This document shows positions 24,013 through 33,632 of a DNA stretch of 33,632 bases, one piece after another. Source of the stretch: Chthoniobacterales bacterium. Its GTDB lineage: Bacteria; Verrucomicrobiota; Verrucomicrobiia; Chthoniobacterales; JACTMZ01. Each line of letters starts with the position of its first letter. Position 1 is the first letter of the stretch. The DNA lies in contig VEQL01000028.1 of the NCBI GenBank assembly GCA_018883245.1, forward strand, positions 1 to 33,632, written 5' to 3'. Made by a program: the position numbers and the translations under genes. The notes beneath the pieces were generated by a model. That model saw only the letters and a program-made list of their open reading frames with translations, ran no database searches and was not told the DNA's origin.

Positions 24013-24257
24013 GTTTTTCTTTTTAAGTCGTTAATCCTCTGTAGCTTGGAAACTCATTGAGCGGGGTTGACTCCTCAAAAATCAGGCCAAAACGCCTAAA
24101 ATTTGGCCACTTTTCAACGTCGTTCAAGGACGTCAATGAGGATCGGGATTTGGGGCTGGGGGCCGAGGACTGCGCTAATTTTATTTTTTCGGTCCCCGTA
24201 TGACTCGAAAACCCCTTTTCGGACCGGTCCAAGCCTCTAAACTTGCTGGTCCAAGCC
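24013..24257. promoter_or_regulatory. AT-richer intergenic region with inverted and direct repeats ahead of the first YbjN gene
   Basis: This 245-base stretch has about 45-48% GC on two hand-counted lines, lower than the flanking genes. GGCCAAA (24085-24091) pairs with TTTGGCC (24102-24108) across 10 bases. CGGTCC at 24190 pairs with GGACCG at 24221, and GGACCGGTCC (24221-24230) is a perfect 10-base palindrome. GGTCCAAGCC occurs at 24226-24235 and again at 24248-24257, ending at the start codon. The palindrome and direct repeat near the ATG could be an operator. That is an inference, and no promoter was assigned with confidence. Confidence 0.45.
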
Positions 24258-24953
24258 ATGAGTGACGAAAGCTTCTCTCCCCAGTTCGGATCGCCTTTCC
24301 AAGTTGTCGTGGATCATTGCGAGGAGGCCGGGATCAAGTTTCGAGCCGAACCCGATGTGAAGGGCGTGTTCTTTTCCATGCGCGGCGAGATGGCCATTTA
24401 CGACGTGGCTCTCCTCGTCACGCATGACGATCAGGTATTCCAAATCTACCTCACCATCCCCATTGCAACCACCGAGGAGCGGCTGCGACCCCTCGTCGCT
24501 GAATTTGTCACCCGGGCCAATCACCGCATCGTCATTGGCCATTTCGACTATGACATGGACGAGGGGAGGCTTCGCTACCACATAGGGCATCCGTTTGGCG
24601 AAAGAGGCCTCGATGACGAAACAGTCGGGCGTCTCTTTGCCACAGCCATGGGAACTGCGGACCGGTATTTTCCCGCCCTCATGCGGGCCTTGGTGGGTGG
24701 CGAGACACCTGCTGACGCCGTTTACTTGGCCGAGTTGGATTACCATGCCGAGGCAGCGCATGAGGAAGACCGGGAGACGGCCCATCAATCTTCAAAAGAA
24801 GCTCCGCAGCCCCCGAAACCCTCTCTCAATAAGCGCAACCGGCGTCCTCGCAAGGATCCGCGGTTGAAATCGACCCGCGAGCTGCCGGGGCTTTTCGAGC
24901 GTCCGAAAGAGGAGAGGGGACCCGAGTCCAAAGGAAATCCGCCGGCTTCCTGA
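24258..24953 (+). CDS. YbjN-domain protein, copy A
   Basis: A 231-residue cytoplasmic protein with a YbjN domain (type III secretion chaperone-like fold) over about residues 8-165. Support is the helix PFQVVVDHCEEAGIKF, the strands FFSMRGEMAIYDVALLVTHDD and FQIYLTIPIA, EERLRPLVAEFVTRANHRIV, and MGTADRYFPALMRALVGGET. Family members are poorly understood and often called sensory transduction regulators. The last 60 residues are a charged, proline-rich tail with RRPRK and a terminal LPGLFERP. A second copy at 28045-28707 shares THDD, RANH, GRLF, TADRYF, ALMR, DAVYLAEL, and both tail elements. ATG 24258 is preferred to a TTG at 24243. No clear ribosome binding site precedes it. Confidence 0.78.
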   Translation: MSDESFSPQFGSPFQVVVDHCEEAGIKFRAEPDVKGVFFSMRGEMAIYDVALLVTHDDQVFQIYLTIPIATTEERLRPLVAEFVTRANHRIVIGHFDYDMDEGRLRYHIGHPFGERGLDDETVGRLFATAMGTADRYFPALMRALVGGETPADAVYLAELDYHAEAAHEEDRETAHQSSKEAPQPPKPSLNKRNRRPRKDPRLKSTRELPGLFERPKEERGPESKGNPPAS

Positions 24954-26797: not shown

Positions 26798-26962
26798 ATG
26801 ACAAAAGAAACCTGCGAAAAAGTCGAAGCGATCTGCGACCAGCTGCTCGGCAAGGAGGGAATGGACAAATACCCCTGGCTCCTCGTGATCGGACTGCTGC
26901 TCATCGCTTTTTCCCTCCGCAACCACAGGACCCGGTTGGCTCCGGCCTCCGATAGCTTATGA
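26798..26962 (+). CDS. 54-residue single-helix membrane protein
   Basis: A short frame opening MTKETCEKVEAICDQLLGKE, with one hydrophobic segment (YPWLLVIGLLLIAFSL, about 29-44) and a basic tail NHRTRLAP that would stay in the cytoplasm. It starts 4 bases after the previous stop, and its stop overlaps the next ATG (ATGA). This arrangement supports it as a true coupled gene, though the function is unknown. The start is in the sequence TTTATGACA. GAAAGA about 12 bases before the ATG may be a weak ribosome binding site. Confidence 0.65.
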   Translation: MTKETCEKVEAICDQLLGKEGMDKYPWLLVIGLLLIAFSLRNHRTRLAPASDSL

Positions 26963-27894
26963 CACACGCCACCATGGACACTCCGAGCGGCGTCTGTTTT
27001 ACATCGGGCATGACAAAAAACCTTTCCGAGACTCCCGCGCCAGCCGGCGAAAACTGGCTTATACGCCGCCTCCGCCGATCGGTGCGCTTCCAGTATTTTC
27101 TCCGCCGCGTCGTCATCGACGGCACCCTTCCGGCCAATCCTGCGGCTTGGCTGCCTGTGCTTTTCACCGGCCCTCGTCCGCCCTCGGGCCCGGGCCTCCG
27201 CAAAGCAATCCGCAGCTGGTCCCGCCGCCGTTTTCGCGGGGTCGGCTGTGAGATGCGCGTGGAAGAAGTCGATGCACCGCCGCCTTTGCTCGAGCCGGGC
27301 GGGCAGGGGACACGCGGGGGTGTTGCCTTCTCCGCACGTTGTGCCGATGGAGATCGCATTGCCTGTTTTCTCGCATGGTTGGCTGCGGATGGATCCCGCG
27401 GCACCTATGCCATCTTTGACGAAGGCGCGGACGAAATCACCACCCGCGCGCTCGAGCCTTTCACCGACGAGGGAGAGATCATCGGCCAACTCGACCGCTT
27501 GGCGGCGGGTTTTGTCGGCGAACATGTCATCGGACGCGCTTTCGAGGATTGGCTCGACGAATACACCCCCGCTTGGCTGCTCACCGAACATCGCGTTTCG
27601 CCCGAAGTCGCGCAGCGTCAACAGGAGGAACAATGGACCTATGCCCTTGTGCCGCACGGCAACGGGCAAATCATCATCGGGCGCTCTCCGCTCAGTTGCG
27701 TTGGCGTGGAAGTCGGTGTTTTCTACGCCGACGGCCGTGACATGCTCGTGCGCCAGCATTATGTGGGCCTCGCCGGATCGCCGGCCGCCATGCGCGCTCT
27801 TCTGACCAAAAACTTCGGCACAGGTCCGGATGACACCGTCATTGCCGCCTGGATGCTCCATCGCGTCGTGCCTGCTCTTCAACCCGCCAACTGA
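26959..27894 (+). CDS. Hypothetical 311-residue protein
   Basis: A protein of unknown family. It opens MTHATMDTPSGVCFTSGMTK and has a basic section (NWLIRRLRRSVRFQYFLRRV) and a proline-rich linker. It then has an alpha/beta body with CEMRVEEVDAPPPLLEPGGQ, DGDRIACFLAWLAADGSR and TYAIFDEGADEITTRALEPF. Its end is FYADGRDMLVRQHYVGLAGS, and VIAAWMLHRVVPALQPAN. No signal or transmembrane helix is clear. A start at the internal M18 (MTKNLSETPAP) is also possible. The ATG at 26959 overlaps the previous stop, favouring it. The last 20 bases of the gene belong to a direct repeat that recurs 120 bases downstream, so the C-terminus may have been shaped by the repeat. Confidence 0.65.
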   Translation: MTHATMDTPSGVCFTSGMTKNLSETPAPAGENWLIRRLRRSVRFQYFLRRVVIDGTLPANPAAWLPVLFTGPRPPSGPGLRKAIRSWSRRRFRGVGCEMRVEEVDAPPPLLEPGGQGTRGGVAFSARCADGDRIACFLAWLAADGSRGTYAIFDEGADEITTRALEPFTDEGEIIGQLDRLAAGFVGEHVIGRAFEDWLDEYTPAWLLTEHRVSPEVAQRQQEEQWTYALVPHGNGQIIIGRSPLSCVGVEVGVFYADGRDMLVRQHYVGLAGSPAAMRALLTKNFGTGPDDTVIAAWMLHRVVPALQPAN

Positions 27895-28044: not shown

Positions 28045-28707
28045 ATGCAAAACTTCCTCTCTCCCTTCGAGACACTCGTCGAACACTGCAAAGAAAACGA
28101 CATCAAGTGCCATGTCGACCACGGCCGCAAACTCATCGGTTTCTCCATGTGCGGTGATGCCGCCGTCTACAAGATCAAGTGGTGCATCACGCACGACGAC
28201 GAGATGTTGCAGATGGATCTCTCCCTTCCGGTCCAGGCGCGCGATGAAAAGATGCGTCCTTTCGTCATGGAAACGCTCCTGCGCGCGAATCACAAATTGG
28301 TCTTGGGCAACTTCAATCTCGATTTCTCCGACGGCGAAATTGTCTACCATCTCGCTGCGCCGATCGGCGAAGCCGGTCTCGAGGACCGCGTGATCGGTCG
28401 TCTCTTCGGCACCGCTTTGGTCACGGCCGATCGTTACTTCGCCGCGCTCATGCGCGTTATTTTCGGCGGCCACACGCCGGAGGATGCCGTTTACCTCGCG
28501 GAGCTTCCGCTGCACAGCGAGACAGTCTCGGAAGAGACCAAGCCCGGGAAGGCGGGGAAATCCGCGCCCGCGGCAAAACCGTCGTCGAAAAAACCTGCCC
28601 GCCGTCCGCGCAAAGCAAAGCAGCCCCCGAAATCCGACGGCGCGGCTCCCGATCTTTTCAACCCGCCCGCCGGCGAGGGGACCGATCCGGCCAAACGCGA
28701 CCGCTAA
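28045..28707 (+). CDS. YbjN-domain protein, copy B
   Basis: A 220-residue paralogue of the protein at 24258-24953. The YbjN domain runs over about residues 5-155, with FETLVEHCKENDIKCHVDHG, CGDAAVYKIKWCITHDDEML, EKMRPFVMETLLRANHKLVL, and ALVTADRYFAALMRVIFGGH. The tail from about 160 is Lys/Pro/Ala-rich, contains RRPRK like copy A, and ends with PDLFNPPAGEG, parallel to PGLFERP of copy A. The two copies have clearly diverged, so the duplication is not recent. The start ATG lies in a CT-rich repeat context without a ribosome binding site. The function of the family is poorly known. Confidence 0.78.
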   Translation: MQNFLSPFETLVEHCKENDIKCHVDHGRKLIGFSMCGDAAVYKIKWCITHDDEMLQMDLSLPVQARDEKMRPFVMETLLRANHKLVLGNFNLDFSDGEIVYHLAAPIGEAGLEDRVIGRLFGTALVTADRYFAALMRVIFGGHTPEDAVYLAELPLHSETVSEETKPGKAGKSAPAAKPSSKKPARRPRKAKQPPKSDGAAPDLFNPPAGEGTDPAKRDR

Positions 28708-28770: not shown

Positions 28771-29778
28771 GTGCCTTACGAGCCGCAATTCCGCATCACG
28801 CCGCGTCTGCTCACGCTGGTCGAGCAGACGGCCTCCTTGCGCGAGCGCATCCAAAGCGCGGCTGTGGAATTGTCGTGGATTCCGGCCCTGCAAAAAGACA
28901 CGCGCACGCGCAACAGTCACGCTTCCACCGCCATCGAAGGCAATCCTCTGACTCTCGAGCAGGTCCGCGCGCTTGAGGAAGGCCGCGAACTTTCCTCCGT
29001 CGAGGCTCGCCCGAAGCGCGAGATCCTCAATTACTTCGCCGGTCTACGTTACGTGGAAAAGCACGCCGGAAAAAAAACCATCCGGCACGAAGATGTCCTC
29101 GATCTTCACCGCTTGCTCGCCGGGCGGGTCATGGACCAAGGCGAGGCGGGCCGCTACCGCACGATCCAAGTCCGTGTCGGCCGGCACTTTCCGCCCGCCG
29201 CGGCCGATGTCTCGGGGCTGATGTTCGAGTTGCTCGACTGGTGGAACAAAAAAGCATCCGCGCTTTCACCGGTGCTGAGTTCCTCCATCCTCCATTACCA
29301 ATTCGAGTGGATTCACCCCTTCGCCGACGGCAACGGACGCACCGGCCGCGCTCTCGCCCTGTGGGAGTTGTATCGCCGCGGCTTCGACAGCCATCACATT
29401 TTCTCCGTGGACGAATACTATTGGGAAGATCGTCCGGCCTACTACCGCGCCCTCGACGCCGTGCGGAAAGATGGCGGAGATTTGACCGGTTGGTTGGAAT
29501 ACTCCGCCCAAGGACTTTGCCAGACCCTCGATCGCGTTTGGACGCGTGTGCAGTCATACCAAGTGCGATCACCCGGCAAGCTCGTCCTGCGACCGCGGCA
29601 GGAACAACTTCTGCGGCTGCTGCGCGATCACGGCAGCATGGCGCCGTCCGAACTATGGTCCGCCCTGCGCATTTCGAAGCAGGGAGCCATGGATCTCCTG
29701 CGTCCCTTGCTTGCCGCGGGCTTGGTCGAAAAAATCGGCACAAAAAAAACTGGCCGTTACGCGCTCAAGAAAGCCTGA
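28771..29778 (+). CDS. Fic family protein with winged-helix C-terminus
   Basis: A 335-residue Fic/Doc protein. The Fic core motif IHPFADGNGRTGR (H182-R193) is complete, so AMP transfer onto a target hydroxyl is predicted. The N-terminal inhibitory helix carries STAIEGN (52-58), the class II [ST]xxxE[GN] motif, with E56 blocking ATP binding until relieved. The 270-335 region has LRPRQEQLLRLLRDHGSMAP and ISKQGAMDLLRPLLAAGLVE, a winged helix-turn-helix. This resembles large stand-alone Fic proteins with an N-terminal Fic_N region and not a phage-type Doc toxin, and no antitoxin gene is beside it. The start is GTG 28771, which gives the family N-terminus PYEPQFRITPRLL. There is no ribosome binding site in the usual place. 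Confidence 0.92.
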   Translation: MPYEPQFRITPRLLTLVEQTASLRERIQSAAVELSWIPALQKDTRTRNSHASTAIEGNPLTLEQVRALEEGRELSSVEARPKREILNYFAGLRYVEKHAGKKTIRHEDVLDLHRLLAGRVMDQGEAGRYRTIQVRVGRHFPPAAADVSGLMFELLDWWNKKASALSPVLSSSILHYQFEWIHPFADGNGRTGRALALWELYRRGFDSHHIFSVDEYYWEDRPAYYRALDAVRKDGGDLTGWLEYSAQGLCQTLDRVWTRVQSYQVRSPGKLVLRPRQEQLLRLLRDHGSMAPSELWSALRISKQGAMDLLRPLLAAGLVEKIGTKKTGRYALKKA

Positions 29779-30233: not shown

Positions 30234-31535
30234 ATGCCAGAGCAGACTTACCTAGTTTACCTCTTTGCCGTCGGCGGGTTGATCTTCGGGGTCGTGTTGT
30301 GCCTGATCCCGGCCCTTGTCTTCCTTTACCGCAAGACCGTGCAAATTGCCGCGCTCTCTGCCGAGAAAAACGCCCTGCAGACCACCATCGCCGCGCGCGA
30401 TTATGACGAGGTGCGCCTCAAGGAGGCCTTCCACGCCGTCTCCTCCCAAGTCCTGCAGGAGAACAACAAATCTTTCCTTGATCTCGCGCAGCAAAACCTC
30501 GGCCAATTCCAGACCGAGGCCAAAGGCGACCTTGCCGCCCGCGAAAAAGCGATTGCCGACCTCCTGAAACCCATCAACGACCAACTCGGCCACTTCAAAG
30601 AATCCGTCGCCAAAGCGGTCACCGATGCCGGCGATGAGCGCAAAGCTCTCAAAGTCCAGGTCGAGGAACTCGTCAAATTCAGCAATGCCGTCAGCACCGA
30701 TGCCAAAAACCTCACTGAAGCCCTCAAAGGATCCAACAAAGTCCAAGGCGACTGGGGCGAGATGATCCTGGAGCATCTGCTTGAAGCCTCCGGCATCCGC
30801 AAAGGCATCGGCTTCACCGTCCAGAAGCAATACGAGGACGGCGAAGGCAAAAAAGGCAAACCCGACGTCATCCTCAATCTTCCTGCCGATCGTTGCCTTG
30901 TTGTCGACTCGAAGGTCTCCATCGACGCCTACGTCGGCTACGCAGGCACAGACGACCCCACGGAACGTGACGCCCGGCTGAAAGACCACATCCGCTCCAT
31001 CCGCGCGCACATCGACGGTCTTTACGGGCGCAACTACCAGAAGCTTTACGGCATAAAGGAGACACCCGACTTTGTCGTTATGTTCGTCCCCGTCGAGCCT
31101 GCGTTTCTCTTGGCCATCTCGCGCGATGAAAAACTCTTCATGGACGCATGGCACAAGAACGTCCTGCTGGCCAGCCCCTCGACGCTGCTTTACGTGCTGC
31201 GCATCGTGGAAAATCTGTGGCGTCAGGAAAAACAGGCCCTCAACTCCCGCGAGATCGCCGAGCGCGGTGCCAAGCTTTATGACAAATTCGTCGGCTTCGC
31301 CGTCGACTTCGAGCGCATCGGCAAGTCCCTCGACAGCGCGCGCAAGGCCTACGATGACGCGCACAGTGTCTTGGCTACGGGCTCCGGCAATCTTGTTCGT
31401 CAAACCGAGATGCTGCGCGATCTCGGCGTGAAACCCACCAAGAACCTTCCGCCGAAACTCCTCGAGTCCTCCGCCGGGGAGCCTCGATTCCTTCCGGAAG
31501 GGGACGAGGAGCAGAAGGTTGCAGTAGCCAATTGA
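30234..31535 (+). CDS. rmuC: RmuC family DNA recombination protein
   Basis: RmuC limits DNA inversions at short inverted repeats and is thought to be nuclease-related. The 433-residue protein has one N-terminal membrane helix (LVYLFAVGGLIFGVVLCLIPALVFLY). A coiled coil covers about 33-160. The RmuC domain follows, with SNKVQGDWGEMILEHLLEAS, GKKGKPDVILNLPADRCLVV, DSKVSIDAYVGYA, DFVVMFVPVEPAFLLAISRD, and LLASPSTLLYVLRIVENLWR. The DVILNLP...VVDSKVS arrangement is like a restriction-nuclease fold core. It is preceded by the repeat-filled gap, and the PD-(D/E)XK gene follows 48 bases on. No clear ribosome binding site is seen before the ATG. Confidence 0.93.
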   Translation: MPEQTYLVYLFAVGGLIFGVVLCLIPALVFLYRKTVQIAALSAEKNALQTTIAARDYDEVRLKEAFHAVSSQVLQENNKSFLDLAQQNLGQFQTEAKGDLAAREKAIADLLKPINDQLGHFKESVAKAVTDAGDERKALKVQVEELVKFSNAVSTDAKNLTEALKGSNKVQGDWGEMILEHLLEASGIRKGIGFTVQKQYEDGEGKKGKPDVILNLPADRCLVVDSKVSIDAYVGYAGTDDPTERDARLKDHIRSIRAHIDGLYGRNYQKLYGIKETPDFVVMFVPVEPAFLLAISRDEKLFMDAWHKNVLLASPSTLLYVLRIVENLWRQEKQALNSREIAERGAKLYDKFVGFAVDFERIGKSLDSARKAYDDAHSVLATGSGNLVRQTEMLRDLGVKPTKNLPPKLLESSAGEPRFLPEGDEEQKVAVAN

Positions 31536-31583: not shown

Positions 31584-32357
31584 ATGCCCCGCACGAAGTC
31601 CGCCGAACCTAAAAAGCCCAAGACCTCGAAGTCTCGCAAGAAGCTCTACGAGCCCGGATCAACTGACCCGTATTCCCTCAGTCGCTCGAAGATCGACCTT
31701 TTCCTGAACTGTCCGCGCTGCTTTTACTTGGACCAGAGGCACGGGATCGGACGCGTGTCCGGTCCGCCCTTCACCATCAACAGTGCCATCGATTCCCTAC
31801 TCAAGAGAGAATTCGACTCCCATCGCATCGCAGGCACGGTGCCGGATGTCCTTGCAGACGCAGGTCTTGATTACGTGCCTTTCCGCCACGAGAAGATCGA
31901 TGATTGGCGCAATTTCCGCCGCGGAGTTCATGCCTTGCACACCGAAACCATGTTCGATGTCTATGGTGCGCTCGACGACGTGTGGCAAAATCCGGCGACG
32001 CAGGAAATTCTCGTTGCCGACTATAAAGCCACCGCCAAGGCGTCCGATGTCGGGATCGATGCCGACTGGCAGATTTCCTACAAGCGGCAGGTCGAGCTCT
32101 ACCAGTGGCTGCTCAGGGCAAATGGCTTCCGGGTGTCGGAAACGGCTTGGTTCGTTTATGCGAATGGCGATGTCTCGGCCCAGGCGTTCGGCGCTCGCAT
32201 GGACTTTAGAATCAGCCTCATTCCCTACGCAGGCGATACCGTTTGGATCGAGCCGACTCTGCGTAAAATCGAAGAAACCCTAGAGTCCGACCAACCGCCG
32301 GACGCGCCCGAGTCTTGTTCTTGGTGTGAATACCGCAAAAAGACGGCTGGCATCTAA
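31584..32357 (+). CDS. PD-(D/E)XK nuclease-superfamily protein with four cysteines
   Basis: A 257-residue protein. A basic, low-complexity N-terminus (1-22) precedes SLSRSKIDLFLNCPRCFYLD. The nuclease core has GALDDVW with D131, EILVADYKATAK with D146 and K148, and the helix KRQVELYQWLLRANGF with Q169. Cysteines C43 and C46 (NCPRC) and C245 and C248 (CSWCEY) flank the core in the manner of Fe-S containing Cas4/AddB-type nucleases. Those usually have one N-terminal and three C-terminal cysteines, so the 2+2 arrangement is a variant. A single-strand exonuclease role is an inference. Its GC content is like the core genes. The Z1 gene begins 40 bases later. Confidence 0.82.
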   Translation: MPRTKSAEPKKPKTSKSRKKLYEPGSTDPYSLSRSKIDLFLNCPRCFYLDQRHGIGRVSGPPFTINSAIDSLLKREFDSHRIAGTVPDVLADAGLDYVPFRHEKIDDWRNFRRGVHALHTETMFDVYGALDDVWQNPATQEILVADYKATAKASDVGIDADWQISYKRQVELYQWLLRANGFRVSETAWFVYANGDVSAQAFGARMDFRISLIPYAGDTVWIEPTLRKIEETLESDQPPDAPESCSWCEYRKKTAGI

Positions 32358-32397: not shown

Positions 32398-33632
32398 ATG
32401 GCTAAATTCAACCCCGACGACTTTGGTAGCACCATTAGCTACCTCAAACAGCAGTATGAGCGCGAAAAAGGTAATTGGGGTAAAATCGCGGCGATGTTCA
32501 ACGCTGCAAAAGCTGCCAATGTTCTGGATCCCGGCATCACGCGTGCAGTTTGGGACCAAGCATTAGAACACGCTAAAAAAGAATTTGCGGAGCAAGAAGA
32601 CGCGGAAAGGTCAGCGGCCGCTGCTCAAGACGACGCGACGCTGTCGGATTACGAAGTTGCCGATGTCAAGTTGAGCACTGATGCAGATTCTTGCTGGCAA
32701 TCTTATAAATCAAAGTTGAGCAAGCGCTATCTTCCCAGCGACATCGCGAACCTTGAAAAGTCTGCATTTTCGGTCCTCCAGCGCCTCGTTCGCAGCAGGC
32801 AGGAAGATTCAAGAAAGGCAGAAAGCCGCCGAAACGATGCCGTGAAAGGCATGGTTATTGGTCACGTTCAGTCCGGAAAAACGGGACATATTCTCGGGCT
32901 CATGTCGATGGCCGCAGACCGAGGCTTTAATTTTTTCATAGTCATCAGCGGGACAATTGAAAATTTGCGCCTGCAAACCGAGCAAAGGGCAATGGAGGAC
33001 TTGTGTGGTGAATCCAGAAAATGGGTAATGCTCACGAAGAACGATGTTGCTCCTCGGGGAAGACGTCCTAGCGAGCTACTCGATGATGCCACGCGACCTA
33101 ACTCACGGCGTCCAGAACGCTACTATCACGTTTGCCTTAAAAACGGGACCCGCTTGAAGCACATTTTACAGTGGCTGAGCAAAGACAAGCATGTTCTCAA
33201 GCGTCTGAGGATATTAATCATCGACGACGAAGCCGATCAAGCCAGCGTCAATACTAGAAAGAGGGGCGCTGATTATGATCCGAACGCTGAGACAACAGCA
33301 CGGAACGCGGTAAACAAGAAAATACTTTCTCTTACCAAACTTCCGGCCGATGCCGTCAACTATATAGGATACACAGCAACGCCGGCTGCAAACCTTCTGA
33401 GCGAACCGCCGGGAGAAAACACGCTATTTCCAAGGGATTTCATCAGAAGCCTACCTGAATCCTCATCGTATCTCGGTCCGAAACAGATTCATGGTGCCGA
33501 TGCATGCCTAGGCCCTAAGCAATTGCCGAATAGTGCGTTGGACGGGCTGCCCATCCTTCGGGAAATTCCCGACGACGACAAGCATTTGGTCGATGAAATC
33601 GAGGGTGGGAAAACGAATGAGTTGCCAAAGAC
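32398..33632 (+). CDS. Z1-domain ATPase, N-terminal part (3' end outside window)
   Basis: The frame is open for 411 codons to the window edge. It begins MAKFNPDDFGSTISYLKQQY, with a charged N-terminal part. Nucleotide-binding motifs of a superfamily 2-like ATPase follow: Walker A GHVQSGKT (155-162), LIIDDEAD (273-280) as motif II, and GYTATPAANLL (324-334), with NYIGYTATPA as the classic Z1 signature. Z1 proteins are known from restriction-modification and related defence loci with MORC/MutL-type ATPases, methylases and nucleases. GC content on two hand-counted lines is about 50%, against about 62% in core genes, and the codon use is looser. The start has no visible ribosome binding site. The partners expected downstream are not visible. 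Confidence 0.88.
   Translation, partial: MAKFNPDDFGSTISYLKQQYEREKGNWGKIAAMFNAAKAANVLDPGITRAVWDQALEHAKKEFAEQEDAERSAAAAQDDATLSDYEVADVKLSTDADSCWQSYKSKLSKRYLPSDIANLEKSAFSVLQRLVRSRQEDSRKAESRRNDAVKGMVIGHVQSGKTGHILGLMSMAADRGFNFFIVISGTIENLRLQTEQRAMEDLCGESRKWVMLTKNDVAPRGRRPSELLDDATRPNSRRPERYYHVCLKNGTRLKHILQWLSKDKHVLKRLRILIIDDEADQASVNTRKRGADYDPNAETTARNAVNKKILSLTKLPADAVNYIGYTATPAANLLSEPPGENTLFPRDFIRSLPESSSYLGPKQIHGADACLGPKQLPNSALDGLPILREIPDDDKHLVDEIEGGKTNELPK

What the first reader, a model, noticed from the sequence alone, without database searches (positions are those of the whole stretch)
32398..33632. Z1 ATPase of low GC at the right edge marks a likely acquired defence locus
The gene has Walker A GHVQSGKT, LIIDDEAD and GYTATPA as in Z1 proteins, and its GC falls to about 50%. 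Established work links Z1 proteins with MORC/MutL-like ATPases, methylases and endonucleases in restriction-modification loci. Only the first gene is inside the window, so the system itself is not seen. The PD-(D/E)XK gene before it may be a neighbour by chance, since its GC is core-like.
Basis: partly seen in the sequence, partly recalled or inferred. Interest (0 to 1): 0.7.

Follow-up and report, generated by a model that had tools for sequence, protein, structure and literature searches.

The report
Truncated restriction-type Z1 ATPase gene
The contig ends inside the gene for a DNA-motor ATPase of a known kind of anti-phage restriction-modification system that this genome probably acquired recently; the gene is real and typical, and the rest of its operon is missing from the assembly.

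Summary
ORF 32398-33630 (+) is open at the contig end. It encodes the N-terminal 411 aa (of about 920) of a Z1-family SF2 ATPase, with Walker A GHVQSGKT, LIIDDEAD and YTATPAAN intact. Its GC is 50.4% against 62.8% for the left part of the window, and its codon usage lies 3.8 SD from the window's other genes. The Pfam Z1 domain itself begins just past the contig end.

The window is the whole contig, so downstream genes cannot be read. The assembly has no hit elsewhere to the Z1 domain, the relatives' GHKL family, DUF4420 or a C5 cytosine methylase.

Relatives supply the missing context. Of 29 relatives in the same clade with at least 6 kb downstream, 26 have a GHKL ATPase and 26 a cytosine methylase, nearly all with DUF4420 or an NgoFVII-type (PLD) endonuclease. 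Two complete systems occur in the same order. No other genome of the genus has the gene (0 of 10). The upstream PD-(D/E)XK gene has no homologue in any of these loci.

Best reading: the motor subunit of a CglI/MORC-type restriction-modification system, acquired by horizontal transfer and cut by the assembly. New member of a known kind; low interest.

The parts
32398..33632 (+). 5' part (411 codons of about 920) of a Z1-family SF2 ATPase gene, open at the contig end
   Evidence: SF2/RecA-like fold in the AlphaFold model
32860..32883 (+). Walker A (motif I) GHVQSGKT, residues 155-162
   Evidence: sequence; Q158, S159, G160, K161, T162 invariant in 35 sequences
33214..33240 (+). Walker B (motif II) LIIDDEADQ, residues 273-281
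   Evidence: sequence; D276, D277, E278, A279, D280, Q281 invariant
33361..33393 (+). Motif III-like YIGYTATPAAN, residues 322-332
   Evidence: sequence; T326, T328, P329, N332 invariant
31584..32357 (+). PD-(D/E)XK (PDDEXK_1, Cas4-like) nuclease gene, 40 bp upstream on the same strand; probably an independent accessory neighbour
   Evidence: PF12705 1.9e-11; no homologue in any Z1 locus; not in congeners
30234..31535 (+). Second rmuC paralogue, absent from congeners (they match only at about 40%, like this genome's other copy); probably not part of the system
   Evidence: PF02646 1.4e-93; native codon use

Best explanation
The gene encodes the ATP-driven DNA-motor subunit (SF2 helicase-like domain followed by a Z1 domain) of a MORC/CglI-type restriction-modification operon acquired by horizontal transfer. 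The assembly broke inside the gene, and the lower-GC remainder was not assembled or not binned. In the inferred mechanism, a partner nuclease (DUF4420 PD-(D/E)XK or NgoFVII-like PLD) recognises an unmethylated site, a C5 methylase protects host sites, and the Z1 ATPase dimerises through its Z1 domain and hydrolyses ATP on double-stranded DNA. That drives translocation or one-dimensional communication along the DNA, which licenses cleavage. A GHKL ATPase encoded next to it probably loops or clamps the DNA. Shown here: intact ATPase motifs and fold, foreign composition, absence in congeners, and operon partners in relatives. Inferred: the partners in this genome, and every biochemical step.
For: MzaC hits. 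80 relatives retrieved; 26 of 29 clade loci with at least 6 kb downstream carry a GHKL ATPase, 26 a C5 methylase, 27 the 230-aa protein, 18 DUF4420 and 10 a PLD nuclease. Pfam names for these partners: DUF4420, DNA_methylase, RE_NgoFVII. Complete systems in two genomes of the same order. SF2 fold, with the Type ISP enzymes LlaBIII and LlaGI and Mfd among the top, tied matches. Composition and codon outlier. Absent in 10 of 10 congeners. Biochemistry of Z1 proteins: CglI/NgoAVII (PMC4267653; PMC5737866). Operon precedent: PMC2292703. A horizontally gained Z1/DUF4420/Dcm island in Corynebacterium: PMC5379612.
Against: No partner gene is visible: the contig ends, and the Z1 domain, GHKL, DUF4420 and C5 methylase models find nothing else in the assembly. 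Relatives are only 31-42% identical. Two clade loci have none of the partners nearby (L014, L026), so a partnerless Z1 gene is possible. Low GC alone can also arise from chimeric assembly.
Confidence: 0.8

Rival explanations
1. A Z1 gene without restriction partners: a Z1 protein working with one small upstream protein or alone, as in the Bacteroidales loci L014 and L026.
For: L014 and L026 lack all six partner families within 10 kb and share a ~220-aa upstream gene with no Pfam hit; L014 is among the closest sequences by tree distance.
Against: 26 of 29 clade loci carry the restriction partners; the query groups, with support 0.82, with loci that use PLD nucleases; the upstream gene here is unrelated to the one in L014.
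Confidence: 0.08
2. The RmuC2, Cas4-like PD-(D/E)XK and Z1 genes form one three-gene operon in which the PD-(D/E)XK protein is the nuclease of the system.
For: All three genes are on the same strand with gaps of about 50 and 40 bp; all are absent from congeners.
Against: The PD-(D/E)XK gene has no homologue in any Z1 locus; the one plasmid homologue sits without Z1 or RmuC; one relative locus (L024) has an rmuC, but more than 1 kb away on the other strand; codon use differs sharply from Z1.
Confidence: 0.06
3. Assembly chimera: low-GC DNA from another organism joined at about 32.4 kb.
For: Abrupt GC and codon shift exactly at the gene; the contig ends 1.2 kb later; no other piece of the system is in the bin.
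Against: The PD-(D/E)XK and rmuC2 genes beside it are themselves accessory, which suggests a genuine variable region; the query segment matches one place only in the assembly; two genomes of the same order carry such systems at similar GC of about 51%.
Confidence: 0.06

Closest known systems
CglI / NgoAVII restriction-modification (N.CglI, also called H.CglI)
   Same: N-terminal SF2 DEAD-like ATPase domain in a Z1-family protein; the loci closest in the tree pair Z1 with an NgoFVII-type PLD nuclease with a B3-like domain and a C5 methylase.
   Different: Relatives of the query add a GHKL ATPase and two further proteins; the partners are not visible in this genome; no direct sequence comparison with N.CglI was made.
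MORC/paraMORC restriction-modification operons (Iyer et al. 2008, PMC2292703)
   Same: Same gene set in relatives: SF2 helicase with a Z1-type domain, GHKL ATPase, PD-(D/E)XK or HKD nuclease, C5 methylase, Vsr.
   Different: In the window only the helicase part is present.
MZA anti-phage system (MzaC)
   Same: Best named family for the protein (NCBIfam and PADLOC MzaC); an AIPR/MzaE-like gene occurs in the same-order locus L137.
   Different: Score 115 bits against a cut-off of 1500; full-length relatives also reach only about 250-280; relatives have a C5 methylase and another GHKL family.

Membership tests
Z1-family SF2 ATPase | Walker A, DExx box and TATP motif of the Z1 helicase group | tested here: met
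   All residues conserved with 34 relatives; model matches SF2 RecA domains
Z1-family SF2 ATPase | Z1 domain (PF10593) after the helicase domain | not testable with these tools
   The domain begins at residue 401-423 in relatives; the contig ends at residue 411; Pfam shows no Z1 hit on the fragment
CglI/NgoAVII-type RM system | Adjacent C5 cytosine methylase | not testable with these tools
   Contig end; none elsewhere in the assembly; present in 26 of 29 relatives' loci
CglI/NgoAVII-type RM system | PLD/B3 (NgoFVII-like) endonuclease partner | not testable with these tools
   Contig end; in sister loci such as L010 RE_NgoFVII 9.4e-24
MORC/paraMORC RM operon | GHKL ATPase gene next to the helicase gene | not testable with these tools
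   Contig end; profile of the relatives' GHKL family finds nothing in the assembly, while it rings in G059 and G261; 26 of 29 relatives' loci have it
MZA system, MzaC equivalog | NCBIfam NF041933 curated cut-off of 1500 bits | tested here: not met
   115 bits for the fragment; even complete relatives reach only 279.5 and 247.5
Horizontally acquired locus | Absent at species level in the genus and compositionally foreign | tested here: met
   0 of 10 congeners; GC 50.4%, codon z -3.84; no junction or mobile-element mark was found

The most novel reading that the evidence does not exclude
The rmuC2, Cas4-like PD-(D/E)XK and Z1 genes form a new three-gene defence operon in which a Cas4-like nuclease replaces the usual DUF4420 or PLD nuclease of Z1 systems.
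Probability: 0.06. Interest if true: 0.5.

Novelty: new member of a known kind. Interest (0 to 1): 0.2.

Why it matters
It adds one more horizontally spread Z1-type restriction motor, in a genus where no other sampled genome has one. The wider comparison shows that the nuclease slot of these operons switches between DUF4420 and NgoFVII-like PLD enzymes while the ATPase, GHKL protein and two unnamed proteins stay. That makes the role of the GHKL partner testable against the well-studied CglI enzyme, whose published description has three genes and no GHKL protein.

Tried and rejected
Search of the same assembly for the rest of the system with PF10593, PF14390, PF00145 and a GHKL profile: nothing (the PF14390 search had no positive control). 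A repeat at the contig end as the cause of the break: the last 2.1 kb match one place only, and start and end do not overlap. The PD-(D/E)XK gene as part of the system: no homologue in any Z1 locus. The ~220-aa protein of the Bacteroidales lone-Z1 loci as an equivalent of the PD-(D/E)XK gene: no similarity. Solved structures by sequence: no meaningful hit for the query, none for a full-length relative. Viral contigs: only six distant relatives, at 27-31%; plasmids 49 records, all under 60% identity.

Full report
What is in the window. ORF 32398-33630 (+) begins with ATG and is open at the end. The window is a complete contig of a draft genome of 2.9 Mb in 84 contigs, C28, 33632 bases. The finding therefore sits at an assembly end, and nothing downstream can be read. 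The 411 residues match MzaC in NCBIfam at 2.7e-33 and in PADLOC at 2.1e-27. A scan of 84,980 genomes gave 460 candidate stretches encoding a relative, of which the best 80 were kept at 31-42% identity. These relatives are mostly 850-950 aa long, so a little under half of the gene is in hand. In an alignment of 35 sequences the residues of GxVQSGKT, IIDDEADQ and the TxTPxxN motif are invariant or nearly so, among 29 invariant columns.

One correction to the naming. In relatives, Pfam's Z1 domain begins at residues 401-423, which is where the contig ends. The window holds the helicase-like ATPase part of a Z1 protein, not the Z1 domain, and Pfam has no Z1 hit on the fragment. An AlphaFold model (mean pLDDT 81) matches SF2 RecA domains. 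The best, mutually tied matches include the Type ISP restriction enzymes LlaBIII and LlaGI (Z 14.8 and 14.1) and Mfd (Z 14.1). Most of residues 1-70 fold confidently as helices, which supports the start codon.

Foreign origin. The gene has 50.4% GC and GC3 of 0.53; the left 24 kb has 62.8% GC. Scored against codon usage of 16 ORFs of the left part, Z1 lies at z = -3.84, the rmuC gene at +0.23 and the PD-(D/E)XK gene at -1.03. None of 10 congeners carries the gene, and the Z1 domain occurs in 9 of 197 sampled genomes of the order. This is the pattern of a sporadic, acquired gene. No mobile element or insertion junction was identified.

Neighbours on the left. The PD-(D/E)XK gene (31584-32357; PF12705, weak Cas4 similarity) is not in congeners and is nearly absent from 388 sampled genomes of the phylum. 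Its one plasmid relative lies without Z1 or RmuC, and no homologue occurs in the fetched Z1 loci. The rmuC gene (30234-31535) is a second copy. This genome has another on C4, and congeners match the window's copy only at about 40%, the same level as the C4 copy. The three genes may lie in one variable region, but there is no evidence that they act together.

What relatives say about the missing part. Profiles were built for the genes that follow Z1. In 29 clade loci with at least 6 kb of downstream sequence, 26 have a GHKL ATPase (motifs RExxQNSLDA, DxxTxG and GGxWGxGKT), 27 a ~230-aa protein, 26 a C5 methylase, 25 a ~312-aa protein, 18 a DUF4420 nuclease and 10 an NgoFVII-like PLD nuclease (names). 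These counts take hits within 10 kb of the Z1 gene on either side. The PLD subset includes the query's weakly supported sister group (support 0.82). Two genomes of the same order have complete systems with two GHKL sets flanking methylase, Z1 and DUF4420. Two clade loci (L014, L026) lack all partners, so the prediction is strong but not certain.

In this genome. The assembly has no hit to the Z1 domain, DUF4420, C5 methylase or the GHKL family. The rest of the operon is thus either absent or, more likely, unassembled or left out by binning, as the differing GC would favour. A chimeric join cannot be excluded without reads.

Mechanism. Z1 proteins are best studied in CglI and NgoAVII. [quoted passage not shown] The nuclease binds the unmethylated site, and ATP hydrolysis is required for cleavage at a fixed distance (PMC4267653). 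Complexes communicate along the DNA, and ATP-driven translocation is proposed (PMC5737866). The proposed role of the GHKL protein is DNA looping (PMC2292703). Transfer of this to the present gene is by homology; no activity has been shown.

Verdict. A genuine, intact, truncated-by-assembly member of a known kind, probably acquired. It is ordinary apart from its absence in congeners.

Noticed in passing
L137:3443-16152 and L160:5487-18086: Two genomes of the same order carry a Z1 system with two GHKL-containing gene sets flanking C5 methylase, Z1 and DUF4420 genes; L137 also has an AIPR/MzaE-like gene. L009 (another group) also has two GHKL sets.
   Followed up: partly
L014:2559-6056, L018:9196-12637, L026:1473-4922: Bacteroidales Z1 genes preceded by a ~220-aa protein with no Pfam hit; L014 and L026 have no methylase, GHKL or known nuclease nearby (L018 ends with the Z1 gene). 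Possibly a distinct Z1 system.
   Followed up: partly
L010, L011, L015, L022, L031, L032, L006 versus L005, L023, L025, L028 and others: The nuclease of these operons switches between an NgoFVII-like PLD enzyme and DUF4420 while the other genes largely keep their order.
   Followed up: partly
window 30234-31535: Second rmuC copy not found in congeners; the genome's other copy lies on contig C4 at about 62250-63242.
   Followed up: partly
window 24243-24953 and 28045-28707: Two YbjN-family genes with Lys/Arg/Pro-rich C-terminal tails in one stretch.
   Followed up: no
window 28771-29778: Fic/DOC-family protein with a MarR-like C-terminal region; 77% identical to one in congener G006.
   Followed up: no
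window 26959-27894: 311-aa ORF with native codon use and no Pfam hit.
   Followed up: no
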